Below the pieces are notes generated by a model. The model did not search any database and was not told where the DNA came from. It was given only the letters and a program-made list of their open reading frames with translations. Both the position numbers and the translations under genes were made by a program. From Candidatus Mediterraneibacter intestinavium (lineage in GTDB: Bacteria > Bacillota > Clostridia > Lachnospirales > Lachnospiraceae), in the NCBI GenBank assembly GCA_019119205.1, contig DWXK01000062.1, forward strand, positions 1 through 64,000: 64,000 nucleotides of DNA, written 5' to 3'. This document shows, piece after piece, positions 24,740-32,255 of this stretch. Every line of letters starts with the position of its first letter. Position 1 is the stretch's first letter.

Positions 24740-24925
24740 TTATTCTGCGTGTACTGCCAAAGTATCCGTTTCGCAGAAGCTGTCTCTGCAAAAAAGAACC
24801 TCTGCATCCAAAGACACAGAGGTTCGTAAATTCATACTTGCGTAATAAATCTCACTTTCCTCGGTAGGCGTTTTTATCCTTACGCTTTACAGCACCTACT
24901 GTCTTCGGCAGTTGCTGTATTACAT
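24740..24925 (-). promoter_or_regulatory. L10 ribosomal protein leader (rplJL autoregulatory RNA)
   Basis: Structured region directly 5' of rplJ with attenuator-like hairpin AACCTCTG...CAGAGGTT and an upstream stem; position and layout match L10 leaders. Confidence 0.7.
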
Positions 24926-24950
24926 TACCACGCCTTTTCTGTTTTGTCAA
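24922..24950 (-). promoter_or_regulatory. promoter for L10 leader/rplJL
   Basis: Minus strand TTGACA (24950..24945), 17 nt spacer, weak -10 TAATGT preceded by TGG. Confidence 0.5.
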
Positions 24951-25038: not shown

Positions 25039-25943
25039 TTACACGCTCTGAGGCAGAAGGCTCTCCTGCTCGATTTCCAGCCCTTTTTCCAGGATACAGC
25101 TTTTCAGTCCGTTCAGTGAGCCCGCCTCCATCCTTTCAAGTCTCTCCCTTTTCTCCTTTGCAAGAGGAATCCCCGCACCCGCAGCGATTGCATTTTCATA
25201 GGCATCCCTGTCCATCCGGTATGGTTTCAGCTCCGGAAACAGCTTTCTCTGATTATAAAAAAATATCCTGATCCCGCCCAGATCCATGTCTCCCCAGTGC
25301 AGATATTCTGTCCCTCCGTCTGCCGCCTTCCTCAACCCTCCAAGAAATCTCAGTTCTTTGGGTGAAAAAAAAACATGGCAGTACACATAAAGCGTATCCT
25401 CTCTGTAGGGCACAGACTCATAGTTCGCTTTATTTTCTATGAGCATGATCCGGCGGATACCCGGAAGAGAAACCGGCCCGGCGTGCTCCAGCGTCTGCGC
25501 GTTGAGTACGGTTCCGAAAACATTCAGAGAAGTATCTATCTCTCCCCCTTCACCAATCCGATAGACAAGGGGACCTTTCCATTCCAGTGTCTGCGAATAC
25601 GTCCGTATTCCATGGATTCTGAGGATGTCATCGTCTGTCATCCCTTCCTCACTGAGAGGGGAATGATTCCTCAAAACCGTTATGACTCTCCGCTGATATT
25701 TTTTCTCAAACAGCTTGGAATCCCCAAGCACTTTATATCTGCTCCCATATCCTTCCACTCCACCTGTACCAGCCCCGCTTTTTCCAGTTCCTTCGCCTCT
25801 TCAACCAGCACTCTCCTGCCGCCGACCGCCCGGATCATCCTGCCATCCGCCGCAGGATGGCGCATCCCCTTAAGCCGTCCTGAACGATAAGCTTCTCCGT
25901 CAGCGCTCCTGATCAGATATTCCGTCAGCTTCACGTTCCTCAC
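25039..25943 (-). pseudogene. jetD: jetD (Wadjet nuclease subunit, DUF3322/DUF2220-like), split into two frames: 25680..25943 (N-terminal part) and 25039..25758 (C-terminal Toprim part)
   Basis: N-part ...LVEEAKELEKAGLVQVEWKDMGADI; C-part in the -1 frame RYKVLGDSKLFEKKYQRRVITVLR...IENKANYESV...HWGDMDLGGIRIF (Toprim-like). The two parts abut directly. Confidence 0.8.
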
Positions 25944-28900
25944 CGCCTTCGATCATTTCAAGATAATGTCCTTTGTCTATATGCATCATGCTGACCTGAT
26001 TCTTAAACCGCCGGAACCCGTACACACTGTCCACGTTCCGGATCAGGGACTGCAGACGCTCGTCCGGCACACAGACGATGAGCTGAAGTTCCAGTTCCCT
26101 GGCATACCTCAGGCACACCTCGCTCCTCTCCTTATCCATCTTGGAGAACGCTTCGTCCAGAAGCACAAGGCGGATCTTGGAATCCCGGTTGCTCTGCTGC
26201 ATGTACAACATGGCAAAGCCTGCGAGCAGGGCCACATATTTCGGATTCTGGCCCTCTCCGCCGGAATCCACCCCGGCCATATCGTCCACGTAGTTCTTTT
26301 TTTCCACGCCATTCTCGTCGATCACCTGCTCATACATGCTGAAATTCAGATAATTTCGGTAATCCGCGAAACGCTCCATCTCCTGACGGTGCTTCTCCCG
26401 GTTCTGGCTGTCCTCTTCCTTCAGGGGCATGAACTTCTCCGTGAGAAGCAGGATCTTCTGCTCGTATTTCTGAAAGAAATCATCCTCCATCAGGCTCATC
26501 TGCCCGTCTATCCCTCCGGTATCGATCACTTTACTGTCCAGTTCCTGAGCCATCAGCATATCGTAAAACTGTCCGTTCTCATTCTTTGCCGGCAGGATAT
26601 CGATCTGATAGATACTGTCGGAGAACCGTATCCTGGAGAGCATCCGGTTGATCTCTCTCCTGTGCCGGTAAGCAGCTTTGATCTCTCCATGCAGTGTGGC
26701 GATCACATTGTCCCGCAGAGAATGATAGACCAGTTCATACTGTTTCCGGAACTCCTCTTTATACTTCGGTTCGAAATCCCTGCGGCATCTCTCCAGCACC
26801 TGATCATAGACATCGTTCGTGTGTTCCACTCCGGTAAATCCATACGCCGGGTATTCCATATTGAACCGGTTCCTCGCAATGGTGCGCGCATCAGAAAATT
26901 CCTCTTCCCTTGCACTCAACTCTTCGAACCGCGCCCGCAGCATCTGGCGGTAGGAAGCTTCTGTCCGTTTCGAAATCTCCGCATTTACCTCTTCCGTAAG
27001 TTCAGGATTCTCTGTGAATCCCATCGTCAGCTCATCCAGCCTGACCGTCAGATCCCGTATCTCCCGTTCTGCCGTCTGCACCACTCCGCCGAGACGGATC
27101 TGCTCTTTCTGGATTTCCCGGGACACCTCTTCCTTCTCCGACACGGATGCCTCCAGCTTCTCCTGCTCCGCTTTCAGTTCCGCCGTTCTGGTACCGTCTT
27201 CCAGTTCCTTTAACTCTTTCTGAAGCTGCTCCTGCTTTTTATAATATTCCTCCAGCTCCTCCGACGCAGAGGCAAGGCGCAGGATCTGCCCCGTCTCCTG
27301 GCTCAGACTCTCATATTTCTGCGCTTCTTTCAGAGAAGCCTCTGTCTGGCGCTCCCTGATCAGGTTCTCCTGGAGTCCTGTGATCTCCTCCGCCAGTTCC
27401 GTCAGGCGGGCTTTCGAGATCCTGGTCCCGATGCACGCTCCTTTCGTATAATCCCTGCTGCGCAGATGACGGAAAATATAATTGCTGTAGGAATAGCAGT
27501 CCGGAGTCACGCCGTCGCGTACGCTGTCCAGTTCCTCCACGGTCTCGCACTTGCGGATCCTTCCCAGATATCGCTTCAGACACCAGTCCACATAGCCCAG
27601 ATCTGTGTGTACCGCTTCATAAAGGGAGTGTTCCTCCGCCTGAGGAGACTCCCGTTTCAGGGCAGCGCTGTTGATAAGATCCACTTCCTCAAATTTCTTC
27701 ATCTTCCGGAATATCTTCGCCGCGTCCAGAGCATATGCCGGCTCCGTGATCATGCTTTTCTTCAGCCGCCCAAGGCGCCCTTCCACCGCGTTTTTCCACT
27801 TCTCATCCGTAATGTCAAAAAGATCTGCAAGGATATGTACATGGATCGTCCTGCCGTAGCGGTCGCTCAATGCGCTCTGAAGCTGTGCTCTGGCCTCCTT
27901 AAGTTCTTTCGGATAGGGTTTCCTGTCATTGTTCATATCCTCCAGAGCTTCTTCTTTCTCCCGAAGCTCCTTCGTCAGCTCACGGATCGACACCGCCTTT
28001 TCCGACAGTTCCTCGGAGATGTTGTCCATGGCCGCCTTCAAATGGGTACGCAGCTCCCCACAGTTCTCCTCTGTCACATCGCCCCGGGCAAAATCATCAA
28101 TGAGCTGCAGAGCACGGTTGCTCACATAATCCGTCGCCGTCTCATCCGTTTCCCAGCTTTTCAGGCCATTCACGATCCTGCGCCAGTCCGCGGAGCTGTC
28201 CGCCAGGAGCCGGATCGTATGTTCCATCTCCTGAAGTTCCTGCTGTTTCTGCCCGTAGTCGCTCTTCTTAAGCTCCGCCCGGACGTCCACCAGCCGGTTT
28301 CTCAGGGCAGTAAGTTCCTCCTGGATCCCATTCTGCCGCCGCACCGCCCGGTCCGCCGCCTCATTCGCCCTCTCCAGGTCCTCCTGGCGGGAGGCAAGCT
28401 TCGCCCGGCAGCCTTCGATATCCACATATTTCTGAAGCGTCTCAATATACAGCTTGTCCGCCCTGACGCCGGTCAGTCCCTGATCCGCAGCATGGATCTC
28501 GTCCAGCATTCCGATCCGCTTTTCCAGATCCTCCACCCGCTCCCGGATCTCCCGGTAGGCGCCAAGCTGCTCACTGATCACCGCCACCGTATTTTCCCGG
28601 CTCTTCGGGAACATATAGTCCCGGATAAACTGACCCGTTCCGCTGGTCATCCGCAGGGCGATGGCGCTCTTCTCCATGGTGATCATGCGCCCTGCTTCCA
28701 CATAGCCGAAGATCACTTCATAGAGCGTGTTCAGGTACGCCTCCTTAGAAGGATAGACCCGGTTCACATCGCCGTGTCCCCGGTTATCCACACTGTTCGC
28801 CCGTTCCTTCGCCAGCTTCCGGATCTGATCGATGGTATAGGGCACACCGTCCTTCAGGTATCCGTCCTCCGGCATCCGCCCGGAATGGCTGAAGAAATTG

Positions 28901-29286
28901 TACCGCCTCAGATCCGTATCATTCTTCCCCACCTCAAACGCCGCGCCGATACAGGTCGTGATATGGGTGCCTGTATCCTCGATCTCCATCACGATCTGAG
29001 AGCAGAAATCCATTCCCTCCCGGTTTACAGTCCCATCTTTCTGCGCGCCGCGGAGATAGCTAAGTACGCTCCGCTTGTTCTTTGAATCGTCCGCCGCCTT
29101 ATTGAGGAAATTAGCGGACACACTTCCGTATAGGACGACCTGGATTGCGTCCATGACCGTGGATTTTCCCGAGCCGCTCTTTCCACTGAACAGGTTTACA
29201 TATTCATGAAGGACGAGTATCTTATGACTGATCCCGCCCCAGTTATTGATCAGGATCCGCGTAAAAAGCTTTTTCGGCTGTTTCAT
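25900..29286 (-). CDS. jetC: Wadjet JetC, SMC/MukB-like ATPase
   Basis: 1128 aa; Walker A LFSGKSGSGKSTVMDAIQVVLYG, long coiled coils, C-terminal GGEGQNPKYVALLAGFAMLY signature and Walker B RLVLLDEAFSKMD. Confidence 0.92.
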   Translation of the reverse strand: MKQPKKLFTRILINNWGGISHKILVLHEYVNLFSGKSGSGKSTVMDAIQVVLYGSVSANFLNKAADDSKNKRSVLSYLRGAQKDGTVNREGMDFCSQIVMEIEDTGTHITTCIGAAFEVGKNDTDLRRYNFFSHSGRMPEDGYLKDGVPYTIDQIRKLAKERANSVDNRGHGDVNRVYPSKEAYLNTLYEVIFGYVEAGRMITMEKSAIALRMTSGTGQFIRDYMFPKSRENTVAVISEQLGAYREIRERVEDLEKRIGMLDEIHAADQGLTGVRADKLYIETLQKYVDIEGCRAKLASRQEDLERANEAADRAVRRQNGIQEELTALRNRLVDVRAELKKSDYGQKQQELQEMEHTIRLLADSSADWRRIVNGLKSWETDETATDYVSNRALQLIDDFARGDVTEENCGELRTHLKAAMDNISEELSEKAVSIRELTKELREKEEALEDMNNDRKPYPKELKEARAQLQSALSDRYGRTIHVHILADLFDITDEKWKNAVEGRLGRLKKSMITEPAYALDAAKIFRKMKKFEEVDLINSAALKRESPQAEEHSLYEAVHTDLGYVDWCLKRYLGRIRKCETVEELDSVRDGVTPDCYSYSNYIFRHLRSRDYTKGACIGTRISKARLTELAEEITGLQENLIRERQTEASLKEAQKYESLSQETGQILRLASASEELEEYYKKQEQLQKELKELEDGTRTAELKAEQEKLEASVSEKEEVSREIQKEQIRLGGVVQTAEREIRDLTVRLDELTMGFTENPELTEEVNAEISKRTEASYRQMLRARFEELSAREEEFSDARTIARNRFNMEYPAYGFTGVEHTNDVYDQVLERCRRDFEPKYKEEFRKQYELVYHSLRDNVIATLHGEIKAAYRHRREINRMLSRIRFSDSIYQIDILPAKNENGQFYDMLMAQELDSKVIDTGGIDGQMSLMEDDFFQKYEQKILLLTEKFMPLKEEDSQNREKHRQEMERFADYRNYLNFSMYEQVIDENGVEKKNYVDDMAGVDSGGEGQNPKYVALLAGFAMLYMQQSNRDSKIRLVLLDEAFSKMDKERSEVCLRYARELELQLIVCVPDERLQSLIRNVDSVYGFRRFKNQVSMMHIDKGHYLEMIEGGEEREADGISDQER

Positions 29287-29881
29287 ACTCTTCCTCCTCT
29301 CCCCGGTACTCTTCGATCAGTGCATTGATATCCGCCGCCGTCACATAAAGATTTACCGTGCTGTAAATATAGATCGGCGTATCGTCTTCCACGTCTCTCA
29401 CCGCACCCGGGACGTCAATGACCTGGTGCGTGCGCATCAGGTACAGAGCCTCCCTCCACTGCGCCTGGGTCAGCTTCTCTGTGATCAAATTTGTGTTTCT
29501 CCCGTATTCACGGATCTCTTTCAGGGTGGTCAAGGGCGCGTTCAGCCCCTCTCCCATGATCCGGTCCCGGTAGATCAGCTTCACGAGGAGGAGGATCACC
29601 GTGCTCGTCAGGCTGAGTTTCTCCTGTGGCACATGCTCTCCGACAAGACGGAAGACGTGTTCCTGGGCATCATGGACCAGCTCGCACCCAAGCACCTCCA
29701 CATAATCAGCAATAAAATTCCGGTGTCTCGCGCAGAGTTCATACTGCGGGTTATCCCTCGGCGTCAGAGTCGCCGGATCGTATTTCACCTGAAGGATACA
29801 GGTCTGTCGGAACAGGGCCTGTATTACTCTCTGTACCTGCTCCGCCTCTGTCACCGCCAGTTCTTCCAGATATTTAAACAT
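29243..29881 (-). CDS. jetB: Wadjet JetB, DUF4194-like
   Basis: 212 aa KleE/MukE-like; overlaps jetC start by 44 nt; gene order A-B-C-D. Confidence 0.85.
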   Translation of the reverse strand: MFKYLEELAVTEAEQVQRVIQALFRQTCILQVKYDPATLTPRDNPQYELCARHRNFIADYVEVLGCELVHDAQEHVFRLVGEHVPQEKLSLTSTVILLLVKLIYRDRIMGEGLNAPLTTLKEIREYGRNTNLITEKLTQAQWREALYLMRTHQVIDVPGAVRDVEDDTPIYIYSTVNLYVTAADINALIEEYRGEEEEYETAEKAFYADPDQ

Positions 29882-29911
29882 AAGGCTTTTCCTTTCCCGT
29901 TCGATGTATTC

Positions 29912-31312
29912 TCAATGAATCTGAAGAGAGGTGAACCGGAATCCGTCGCTGTTTTCCAGTTCATCCCCGAGCGTGATCTCTCCATTCCCCTCCGCCGTCT
30001 CCGTGGCCTCCTGCCATACAAAGAACAGCTTCTCCAGGTCTTCCACACTGTGTACCGTGTCCTCGGCCACACGGAACACGCCGTCTTTCTCATTCTTCCT
30101 CCGGAACTTCTCGATCTCTTTCCTGGTATAAAGAGGCTTCAGCACAAAGGAATCCATCTCCTCTGTTCCCGCCGCTTCTTCTTCCGTCAACGCCTGAGGT
30201 GAAAACTCCTCTTTTGCAGAGGATTTTTTGTGGTACAGGCTGTCCTGGGACAGGAGTTGATACGGCGCGCTCATCCGCACTCTCTCACCAAGCGCTTCCA
30301 GGATTTCCCCTTTCCTGCTGCTTCGGTTCAGGAGACTGACGAACGCCGTCGTCCTGTCATCGCCGTCCGCCCCCTCCTGCATGATGTATCGGATCCGGGC
30401 AGCCGCCCTTCCGGCAAACACCGTCTTCTGCTCAATCAGCTTGTTGTATCTTCTCTCGATCACATCCGACTGGCGCTCGATCCGGAACATAATATCTGCC
30501 GCTTCATCACAGAGCCGGATCGCCTTCTGGCACCGGACGAACTCCGGCGTTCCCTCTTCAAGAACGATCAGTTCGCGCTCCTTCTTTCTCCGCCTCGCTT
30601 CATTCTCATCAAGGTTCTTCACGATCAGCTCCTTCACCGCCTCTTTGTAACGGTAGAAGCTGTCCGTCGTGGTAAGGATCGCGTATTTTCTGCTGTCGCT
30701 GTTGTTGATCTCTTTGACCAAGACATCCTGGATCCCTTTGAAATCCTTCTGCCGGGAAAGTTCGTCAAAATATTCCCGCATCCCGTCCTGCATGTTGACC
30801 AGCATGCGCACCAGCCTCTTTGACGCGTTCAACGCACTTTTCAGGATCTCATTGTTCTTTTCCTGATCCACACTGTATGTATAGAGATAGCTGTAGATCG
30901 CAAGGACACTCTCGCGCTCCTGGCTGTCGCTCTCATCCATCAATCTCGTGAATAGTTCCACGTACATCTGACTGTACTCCGGGAACGTGACAACATACGT
31001 GTTCAGTGTCTCGTCGTAGTCCTGCTTGAGCCAGCCCCAGTCCTCAAAATGCTTCAGGCAGACAGACGCCATGTTCGACCGGGTGAGAAACACGCCCTCC
31101 TCGTCGTAATTCTCGCCATCCCACAGGATCGCCTCGGACGCGATCCGCTCGTTCATCACAGCCCTGCACTCTTTCTCTGTCAGACCAAGCACAGAGTAAG
31201 ACTGTTCCATTGCCCCGTAGATCGCTACAAGGAACGCCATGTAGTATTCCGTATATTTACTTGTAAACAGCTTATAGAAATCCCGGGGGATCCTGCTCAT
31301 CAGACTCATCAC
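29912..31312 (-). CDS. jetA: Wadjet JetA family protein (DUF5716-like)
   Basis: 466 aa; RIPRDFYKLFTSKYTEYYMAFLVAIYGAMEQSYS...; first gene of the jet operon. Confidence 0.85.
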   Translation of the reverse strand: MMSLMSRIPRDFYKLFTSKYTEYYMAFLVAIYGAMEQSYSVLGLTEKECRAVMNERIASEAILWDGENYDEEGVFLTRSNMASVCLKHFEDWGWLKQDYDETLNTYVVTFPEYSQMYVELFTRLMDESDSQERESVLAIYSYLYTYSVDQEKNNEILKSALNASKRLVRMLVNMQDGMREYFDELSRQKDFKGIQDVLVKEINNSDSRKYAILTTTDSFYRYKEAVKELIVKNLDENEARRRKKERELIVLEEGTPEFVRCQKAIRLCDEAADIMFRIERQSDVIERRYNKLIEQKTVFAGRAAARIRYIMQEGADGDDRTTAFVSLLNRSSRKGEILEALGERVRMSAPYQLLSQDSLYHKKSSAKEEFSPQALTEEEAAGTEEMDSFVLKPLYTRKEIEKFRRKNEKDGVFRVAEDTVHSVEDLEKLFFVWQEATETAEGNGEITLGDELENSDGFRFTSLQIH

Positions 31313-31332: not shown

Positions 31333-31354
31333 TGTAACGCAATCATTATACCAC
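31333..31354. repeat. 22-bp direct repeat, copy 1
   Basis: TGTAACGCAATCATTATACCAC, identical to 31464..31485. Confidence 0.9.
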
Positions 31355-31411
31355 AAGCGCAGAAAAGGAAGCGCCGCGCAGCGGCATTTACTTTTCAAGC
31401 TGTAGGTTGCC

Positions 31412-31484
31412 TGGTATAATCCCCGCAAAGCGGGGCAGACCGATTTTATCGGTCTGGATTGCGTGTAACGCAATCATTATACCA
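31412..31484. repeat. 73-bp cloverleaf-like palindrome (9-bp closing stem plus three perfect hairpins)
   Basis: TGGTATAAT | CCCCGC-AAA-GCGGGG | C | AGACCGAT-TTT-ATCGGTCT | G | GATTGCGT-GTA-ACGCAATC | ATTATACCA. Confidence 0.9.
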
Positions 31485-31485
31485 C
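31464..31485. repeat. 22-bp direct repeat, copy 2 (forms the right arm of the cloverleaf)
   Basis: TGTAACGCAATCATTATACCAC, identical to 31333..31354. Confidence 0.9.
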
Positions 31486-31503
31486 GCGCGCCTCCAACAT
31501 GCA

Positions 31504-31550
31504 AAAATCCCCCGGCAGGTTCCGGATACGGGACCCGTCAGGGGATTTCT
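31504..31550 (-). terminator. terminator downstream of rplA
   Basis: Minus strand AAATCCCCTGACGGGT...CCTGCCGGGGGATTTTTG. Confidence 0.7.
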
Positions 31551-31562
31551 CATTTTTATAAA

Positions 31563-32255
31563 CTATGCGAGTTTCATCGGGTTGACCTTCACTCCAGGGC
31601 CCATTGTAGATGTAAGAGTCACGCTCTTTAAGAACTGTCCCTTTACAGCTGCCGGTCTCGCCTTGTTGATCGCATCGATAAGCGTCTGGAAGTTGTCCGC
31701 TAACTGCTCTTCAGTAAAGGATGCTTTACCGATCGGCACGTGGATGATGTTTGTCTTGTCCAGTCTGTACTCGATCTTACCAGCTTTGATGTCGTTGATA
31801 GCCTTTGTCACGTCCATCGTAACTGTTCCCGCTTTCGGGTTCGGCATAAGACCTTTCGGTCCAAGTACACGTCCCAGACGTCCGACGATTCCCATCATAT
31901 CCGGTGTTGCAACAACAACGTCAAACTCAAACCATCCCTCGTTCTGGATCTTCGGGATCAGTTCGTCTCCGCCAACATAGTCAGCGCCCGCTGCCTTTGC
32001 TTCCTCTGCTTTTGCGTCTTTTGCAAACACAAGGATACGAACCTTTTTACCAGTTCCGTGCGGAAGTACGACCGCACCACGGATCTGCTGGTCAGCGTGA
32101 CGTCCGTCACATCCTGTTCTGATGTGTGCTTCGATCGTCTCATCAAACTTTGCTGTTGCTGCTTTCTTTACTAATGCGACTGCTTCTTCTTTATCGTAGA
32201 GATTTCCTCTTTCGATCAGTTTCGCAGCCTCGATATATTTCTTTCCTCGTTTCAT
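31563..32255 (-). CDS. rplA: 50S ribosomal protein L1
   Basis: [48 protein letters not shown]. Confidence 0.99.

What the first reader, a model, noticed from the sequence alone, without database searches (positions are those of the whole stretch)
25039..31312. Wadjet-type SMC defence operon inserted between rplA and rplJ of the ribosomal/RNAP cluster
Seen: four overlapping or adjacent minus-strand genes (jetA 29912..31312, jetB 29243..29881, jetC 25900..29286, split jetD 25039..25943) lie between rplA (31563) and the L10 leader/rplJ (24718). Established: rplK-rplA-rplJ-rplL-rpoB-rpoC is usually near-contiguous, and Wadjet/JetABCD are SMC-family systems that cleave circular plasmids. The cassette sits after a terminator-like hairpin for rplKA and before a separate rplJL promoter (TTGACA at 24950..24945), so the insertion is compatible with expression of the essential genes. 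Inference: this is a permissive, horizontally targeted slot, and read-through could tie Wadjet transcription to growth rate. The DUF5716-like JetA suggests a subtype other than the classical DUF3375 type I.
Basis: partly seen in the sequence, partly recalled or inferred. Interest (0 to 1): 0.78.

Follow-up and report, generated by a model that had tools for sequence, protein, structure and literature searches.

The report
Plasmid-cutting operon that lost its blade
A DNA-looping machine related to bacterial anti-plasmid 'Wadjet' systems sits in a swappable slot between two ribosomal-protein genes of a gut bacterium; here, and repeatedly in related species, its DNA-cutting subunit has been deleted while the looping motor is kept intact, which makes it a natural experiment on what the motor does without its nuclease.

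Summary
jetA, jetB and jetC are intact at the stated coordinates, between an rplA terminator and the rplJ promoter/L10 leader of a Mediterraneibacter-type genome (Lachnospiraceae, incomplete MAG). PADLOC assigns all four genes to type I, not another subtype. 'Split jetD' is a damaged gene: a deletion removes about 90 residues and shifts the frame; the Toprim active site survives in a separate ORF. The rplA-rplJ gap is a real accessory slot in the genus: jetABC(D) in 19 of 58 genomes (20 operons, one on a contaminant contig), empty in 13, other cargo in 10-15 (surface proteins, sugar operons); no integrase was identified among cargo examined. The Wadjet there is mostly long-resident, not freshly inserted. 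The unexpected result is jetD: missing or broken in 7 of 20 slot operons with jetABC intact. On a JetC tree (60 scored) its presence changes at least 21 times, no better than random, whereas more distant Wadjets in the same family nearly always keep it (32/35 versus 13/32). Best reading: a type I Wadjet core that recently lost its nuclease and now probably works, if at all, as a MksBEF-like loop extruder. Retained function is inferred, not shown.

The parts
31563..32255 (-). rplA (L1), upstream flank of the slot
   Evidence: ORF and identity to relatives
31503..31550 (-). terminator hairpin of rplK-rplA, upstream edge of the slot
   Evidence: -29.7 kcal/mol, z=-4.6, followed by T-run; a similar hairpin follows rplA in most genus members
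31464..31491 (-). 28-nt repeat copy 1 carrying an extended -10-like TGGTATAAT
31333..31360 (-). 28-nt repeat copy 2 carrying an extended -10-like TGGTATAAT, just upstream of jetA
29912..31312 (-). jetA (kleisin, DUF5716/PF18982), intact
   Evidence: PADLOC JetA1 E=6.8e-219, Pfam JetA E=9e-81
29243..29881 (-). jetB (KITE, DUF4194), intact
   Evidence: PADLOC JetB1 E=7e-106
25900..29286 (-). jetC (SMC ATPase), intact, Walker A/signature/Walker B present
   Evidence: PADLOC JetC1 E=0; motifs; profile of relatives matches solved JetC chains 8as8 E=2e-23 and 8dk2 E=4e-17
25680..25943 (-). jetD 5' remnant (87 aa, about 72 in frame), profile positions 1-69
   Evidence: PADLOC JetD1 E=5e-13; alignment with intact jetD
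25039..25758 (-). jetD 3' remnant (239 aa, Toprim part with ENKANYE, HWGDMDLGG, IEQES), profile positions 161-386
   Evidence: PADLOC JetD1 E=3e-93; conserved residues in alignment A1
24922..24950 (-). rplJ promoter TTGACA-17-TAATGT, downstream edge of the slot
   Evidence: sequence; TTGAC[AT] just upstream of the L10 leader core in 48 of 50 slots
24784..24926 (-). L10 leader
   Evidence: Rfam RF00557, 79 bits
24158..24718 (-). rplJ (L10), downstream flank of the slot
   Evidence: ORF and identity to relatives

Best explanation
The locus is a type I Wadjet operon (jetABCD) resident in an accessory-gene slot between the rplKA terminator and the rplJL promoter. Shown: jetA, jetB and jetC are intact, and jetD carries an internal deletion and frameshift that removes much of its N-terminal (CAP) part. 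Inferred: without intact JetD the complex can load on and extrude DNA but cannot cut plasmids, so the operon now works, if at all, as a nuclease-free JetABC loop extruder like MksBEF of Pseudomonas. This is one of many jetD losses in these JetABC lineages, in which the nuclease is a labile, sometimes exchanged effector and the motor is kept.
For: jetD deletion. Intact JetABC with ATPase motifs in all slot operons whose genes are complete on a contig. Seven of 20 slot operons lack intact jetD, the six absences on contiguous sequence and with differing breakpoints; if damage struck in proportion to gene length, all seven hitting only jetD would have p about 6e-6. No matching JetD in trans with an 18-sequence profile. 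JetABC dN/dS about 0.03-0.10 with or without JetD in all but one very close pair, JetD 0.10-0.16. In a 63-row JetC tree (60 scored, 30 with JetD) at least 21 changes, shuffled mean 20.3. Distant JetC systems in the same genomes keep adjacent JetD in 32/35 versus 13/32. JetD swap: G286 JetC groups with the window's, its JetD with G291's. The review PMC10586767 says P. [quoted passage not shown] Cultured M. catenae SW178 also lacks jetD.
Against: No expression or functional data. Low dN/dS includes time before jetD loss; the window's Toprim remnant still shows dN/dS about 0.1, so this loss is recent. Damaged operons may be purged before decay is seen. Most genomes are MAGs. The own genome and several JetD-less relatives also carry a type II Wadjet, so JetABC may simply be redundant.
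Confidence: 0.6

Rival explanations
1. The operon is simply decaying: jetD is damaged first because the nuclease is costly (self-damage, or rejection of useful plasmids), and jetABC will follow; it has no present function.
For: The window jetD loss is recent (remnant dN/dS about 0.1); JetD state is scattered at the tips; one genus member (G259, off slot) has a jetC with internal stops.
Against: No broken jetA, jetB or jetC in any slot operon complete on its contigs. All JetC frames of the JetD-less loci read were at least 1115 aa. Pairs of species both lacking JetD keep JetC dN/dS 0.05-0.09 at dS of about 1.5 or more.
Confidence: 0.28
2. It still works as Wadjet: the 239-aa Toprim ORF is re-initiated and acts with JetABC, or another nuclease (for example JetD of the type II system in the same genome) replaces it in trans.
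For: Toprim catalytic motifs and reading frame are preserved; a second Wadjet with a JetC of 1386 aa lies on contig C26 of the same genome, with a Toprim ORF after it.
Against: The N-terminal part is present in all full-length JetDs aligned; six relatives have no type I jetD at all; type I and type II JetC match different models.
Confidence: 0.09
3. The jetD damage is an assembly error or strain mixture in the MAG.
For: G000 is 81.6% complete with 3.4% contamination, and holds a 9-kb contaminant contig of the same locus from a sister species.
Against: The remnant is only 64-73% identical to the contaminant's JetD, so it is not a chimera of the two; independent genomes including a cultured isolate lack jetD.
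Confidence: 0.03

Closest known systems
Type I Wadjet (JetABCD/MksBEFG/EptABCD)
   Same: Gene order jetA-B-C-D, best PADLOC models of all four genes type I; JetC profile matches solved JetC chains
   Different: jetD is disrupted here; JetA is the PF18982 form; the operon sits in a ribosomal-protein slot
MksBEF condensin of Pseudomonas aeruginosa
   Same: Three-subunit SMC-kleisin-KITE without the nuclease; [quoted passage not shown]
   Different: Loss here is recent and recurrent within a genus; a chromosomal role is untested
Chromosomal hotspots of accessory genes flanked by core genes (general knowledge, not tested)
   Same: Same flanking core genes, empty, and filled with unrelated cargo in sister species
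   Different: Inside the usually compact rplKA-rplJL-rpoBC cluster; no integrase identified

Membership tests
Type I Wadjet | JetA, JetB and JetC homologues in one operon | tested here: met
   PADLOC JetA1/JetB1/JetC1 with E<=7e-106
Type I Wadjet | Intact JetC ATPase motifs | tested here: met
   GKSGSGKST, DSGGEGQNPK, LVLLDEAFSKMD present
Type I Wadjet | Intact JetD with CAP and Toprim parts | tested here: not met
   Internal deletion of about 90 codons plus frameshift; no other matching type I JetD belonging to this genome (the C77 copy is on a contaminant contig)
Type I Wadjet | Restriction of small circular plasmids | not testable with these tools
   Needs an experiment
MksBEF-like condensin (JetABC without nuclease) | SMC, kleisin and KITE genes without a nuclease gene | tested here: met
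   Window has no intact jetD; six slot relatives have none
MksBEF-like condensin (JetABC without nuclease) | Purifying selection on JetABC without JetD | tested here: inconclusive
   dN/dS 0.03-0.09, but the time before loss is included
MksBEF-like condensin (JetABC without nuclease) | Role in chromosome organization | not testable with these tools
   Needs an experiment
Mobile island with site-specific integration | Integrase and attachment repeats at the slot | tested here: not met
   No integrase among the cargo proteins scanned, though not every cargo ORF was scanned; one DDE transposase in G263; no attachment repeat recognised by inspection of the flanks

The most novel reading that the evidence does not exclude
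In two Lachnospiraceae JetABC lineages, JetD is a dispensable, exchangeable effector that is lost many times (at least about 20 state changes in 60 sequences), and the JetABC motor has a selected function of its own, so that Wadjet turns into a condensin repeatedly and recently, with JetD-bearing and JetD-less sister species available for direct comparison.
Probability: 0.4. Interest if true: 0.75.

Novelty: new variant of a known kind. Interest (0 to 1): 0.56.

Why it matters
[quoted passage not shown] A genus in which closely similar JetABC exists with and without JetD, including a cultured JetD-less species (M. catenae SW178) and a cultured species with JetD (R. turbiniformis CLA-AA-H200), makes that directly testable. 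It also warns that annotating 'Wadjet' from JetABC alone overstates plasmid immunity in gut Lachnospiraceae.

Tried and rejected
Non-type-I subtype: rejected. Single-protein comparison with solved structures gave no hits; profiles were needed. A replacement effector downstream of JetD-less jetC: downstream ORFs of JetD-less loci do not cluster across genera, apart from the yfcE-NYN context that is also present when JetD is there. Second copy on contig C77 as a true duplicate: rejected, it carries its own rpoB-rplL-rplJ and rplA at about 80-90% DNA identity and is a contaminant from a sister species. JetD loss linked to owning a type II Wadjet: 6/7 versus 3/12 in slot operons (p=0.02), 10/16 versus 5/18 overall (p=0.08), not supported by independent pairs on the tree. 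Taking 'stops inside' in family JetC rows as pseudogenes: rejected, the open frames are full length. Looking for one shared Wadjet entry event: two slot clades exist.

Full report
Observation. The window holds, on the minus strand, rplK-rplA, then jetA (29912-31312), jetB (29243-29881), jetC (25900-29286), two jetD fragments (25943-25680 and 25758-25039), then rplJ-rplL-rpoB. PADLOC gives JetA1, JetB1, JetC1 and JetD1 as best hits, all type I models; the Pfam JetA family is PF18982. A profile of the JetC relatives matches solved JetC chains of about 1100 residues best (8as8, 8dk2) and a longer JetC chain of 1371 residues (9qe0) only weakly. A strong hairpin follows rplA, and TTGACA plus the Rfam L10 leader precede rplJ. 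Two 28-nt repeats with extended -10-like TGGTATAAT lie upstream of jetA.

jetD is damaged. The own assembly contains a second, 9-kb contig (C77) with rpoB-rplL-rplJ-jetD-jetC-jetB-jetA-rplA, about 85-91% identical in the ribosomal genes and 74-80% in the jet genes, evidently from a sister species. Its jetD is intact (396 aa). Against it the window jetD lacks an internal stretch of about 90 codons after residue about 75 and is frameshifted. The PADLOC profile is hit at 1-69 and 161-386. The Toprim motifs survive, and the remnant shows dN/dS of 0.06-0.12 like intact JetDs, so the damage is recent.

The slot. The genus, by contig names, is Mediterraneibacter. RplA and RplJ were located in 58 genomes of the genus and the gap between them read. 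jetABC(D) lies there in 19 genomes (20 operons with C77; in G275, G278 and G281 the rplJ end is on another contig). The gap is empty (210-465 bp) in 13. It holds other cargo in 10 with both flanks and about 5 with one flank; the remaining genomes lack the data. Cargo proteins are mostly surface or metabolic: large surface proteins, GH20, GH2 and GH65 enzymes, PTS and ABC sugar transport, an amino-acid permease with an aminotransferase. G294 has a 49-kb gap that includes kinases and a Tad-like gene. No integrase was found among those scanned; not every cargo ORF was scanned. Cargo lies between the rplA terminator and the rplJ promoter (promoter motif in 48 of 50 slots). By hand tally of the rows shown, genera with RplA at least 89% identical have gaps over 1 kb in 13 of 22, more distant genera in 6 of 55 (p=3e-5). 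So the slot is mainly a property of one part of the family. One neighbour genus (G134) has a NACHT protein in the slot.

History. On a ParE tree, slot state (Wadjet, empty, other) needs 11 changes against 20.6 in shuffles, and Wadjet presence 6 against 14. Seventeen slot JetCs form one supported clade; two slot JetCs group with off-slot copies. This indicates long residence with losses, replacement and some transfer, not a fresh targeted insertion. Exchange by recombination through the conserved flanks is inferred. Caution: the window species' ParE contig (C83) could itself be misbinned.

JetD is labile. Of 20 slot operons, 13 have jetD, six have none (G256, G271, G273, G270, G282, G294) and the window's is broken, with jetABC intact in every case complete on its contigs. 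Breakpoints differ, and the sequence from jetC to rplJ is continuous. G286 has JetC 96% identical to the window but a JetD that groups with G291's, so JetD is also exchanged. Off slot, G279 has only a short jetD remnant and G296 none. A second JetABC lineage (about 30% identical JetC), next to yfcE-NYN (and a nadA-like gene in some), shows the same pattern: JetD sits between jetC and yfcE in G261, G265, G266 and G267 and is gone in seven other species, in several with jetC and yfcE overlapping by 4 nt. Genome-wide profile searches found no matching JetD in trans in those genomes; G179 is an exception with a JetD far away, and G021 and G154 are ambiguous. On a 63-row JetC tree, JetD state in 60 scored rows needs at least 21 changes, the same as shuffled labels (20.3), with 30 of 60 having JetD. 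The control is strong: more distant JetC systems in the same genomes have JetD adjacent in 32 of 35, against 13 of 32 for these lineages (hand tally; p=1.5e-5).

Selection. JetABC dN/dS is about 0.03-0.10 whether or not JetD is present, except in one very close pair (G271-G286) with too few changes to judge; JetD itself is 0.10-0.16. Pairs of species that both lack JetD keep low values at dS of about 1.5 or more, but the age of each loss is unknown and synonymous sites are near saturation.

Interpretation. Shown: a type I Wadjet core with an inactivated nuclease gene, in a variable slot, with many parallel losses of jetD. [quoted passage not shown] In Clostridium cellulovorans deleting jetABCD raises conjugation about five orders of magnitude (PMC12287153), and in C. 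[quoted passage not shown] Rivals are simple decay and residual function.

Noticed in passing
G000 contig C77 (L003:1-9027): The window's own assembly contains a contaminant contig with a second rpoB-rplL-rplJ-jetDCBA-rplA locus from a sister species, with intact jetD.
   Followed up: yes
G000 contig C26 (L230): A second Wadjet (JetC 1386 aa, matching PADLOC JetC2) with a Toprim ORF after it; such systems occur in about 16 genus members. A link to loss of the type I jetD is suggestive only.
   Followed up: partly
L217-L223, L116-L119: A second type I JetABC lineage next to yfcE and an NYN/OST-HTH protein, with an AbiEi-like gene just upstream of jetA in L217; JetD present in four species and cleanly missing in seven.
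   Followed up: partly
window 31333-31360 and 31464-31491: Two copies of a 28-nt repeat carrying TGGTATAATGATTGCG upstream of jetA; the same element stands upstream of jetA in several relatives, so it may be a mobile promoter-like repeat.
   Followed up: partly
L049, L051, L074, L068 just before rplJ: In several relatives a palindromic element (GTAACAGTT...AACTGTTACAG) is inserted between the L10 leader hairpin and the rplJ ribosome-binding site, which could affect L10 autoregulation.
   Followed up: no
L226:4295-8182: A 1295-aa NNH7/NACHT protein, a likely defence gene, occupies the rplA-rplJ slot in another genus.
   Followed up: no
L086-L088 (G294): A 49-kb gap between rplA and rplJ holding Ser/Thr kinases, WG-repeat and Tad-like proteins upstream of a JetD-less jetABC.
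   Followed up: partly
L048 (G286), L058 (G291): JetD of G286 is related to that of G291 although the rest of its operon is 93-96% identical to the window's: exchange of the nuclease gene alone.
   Followed up: partly
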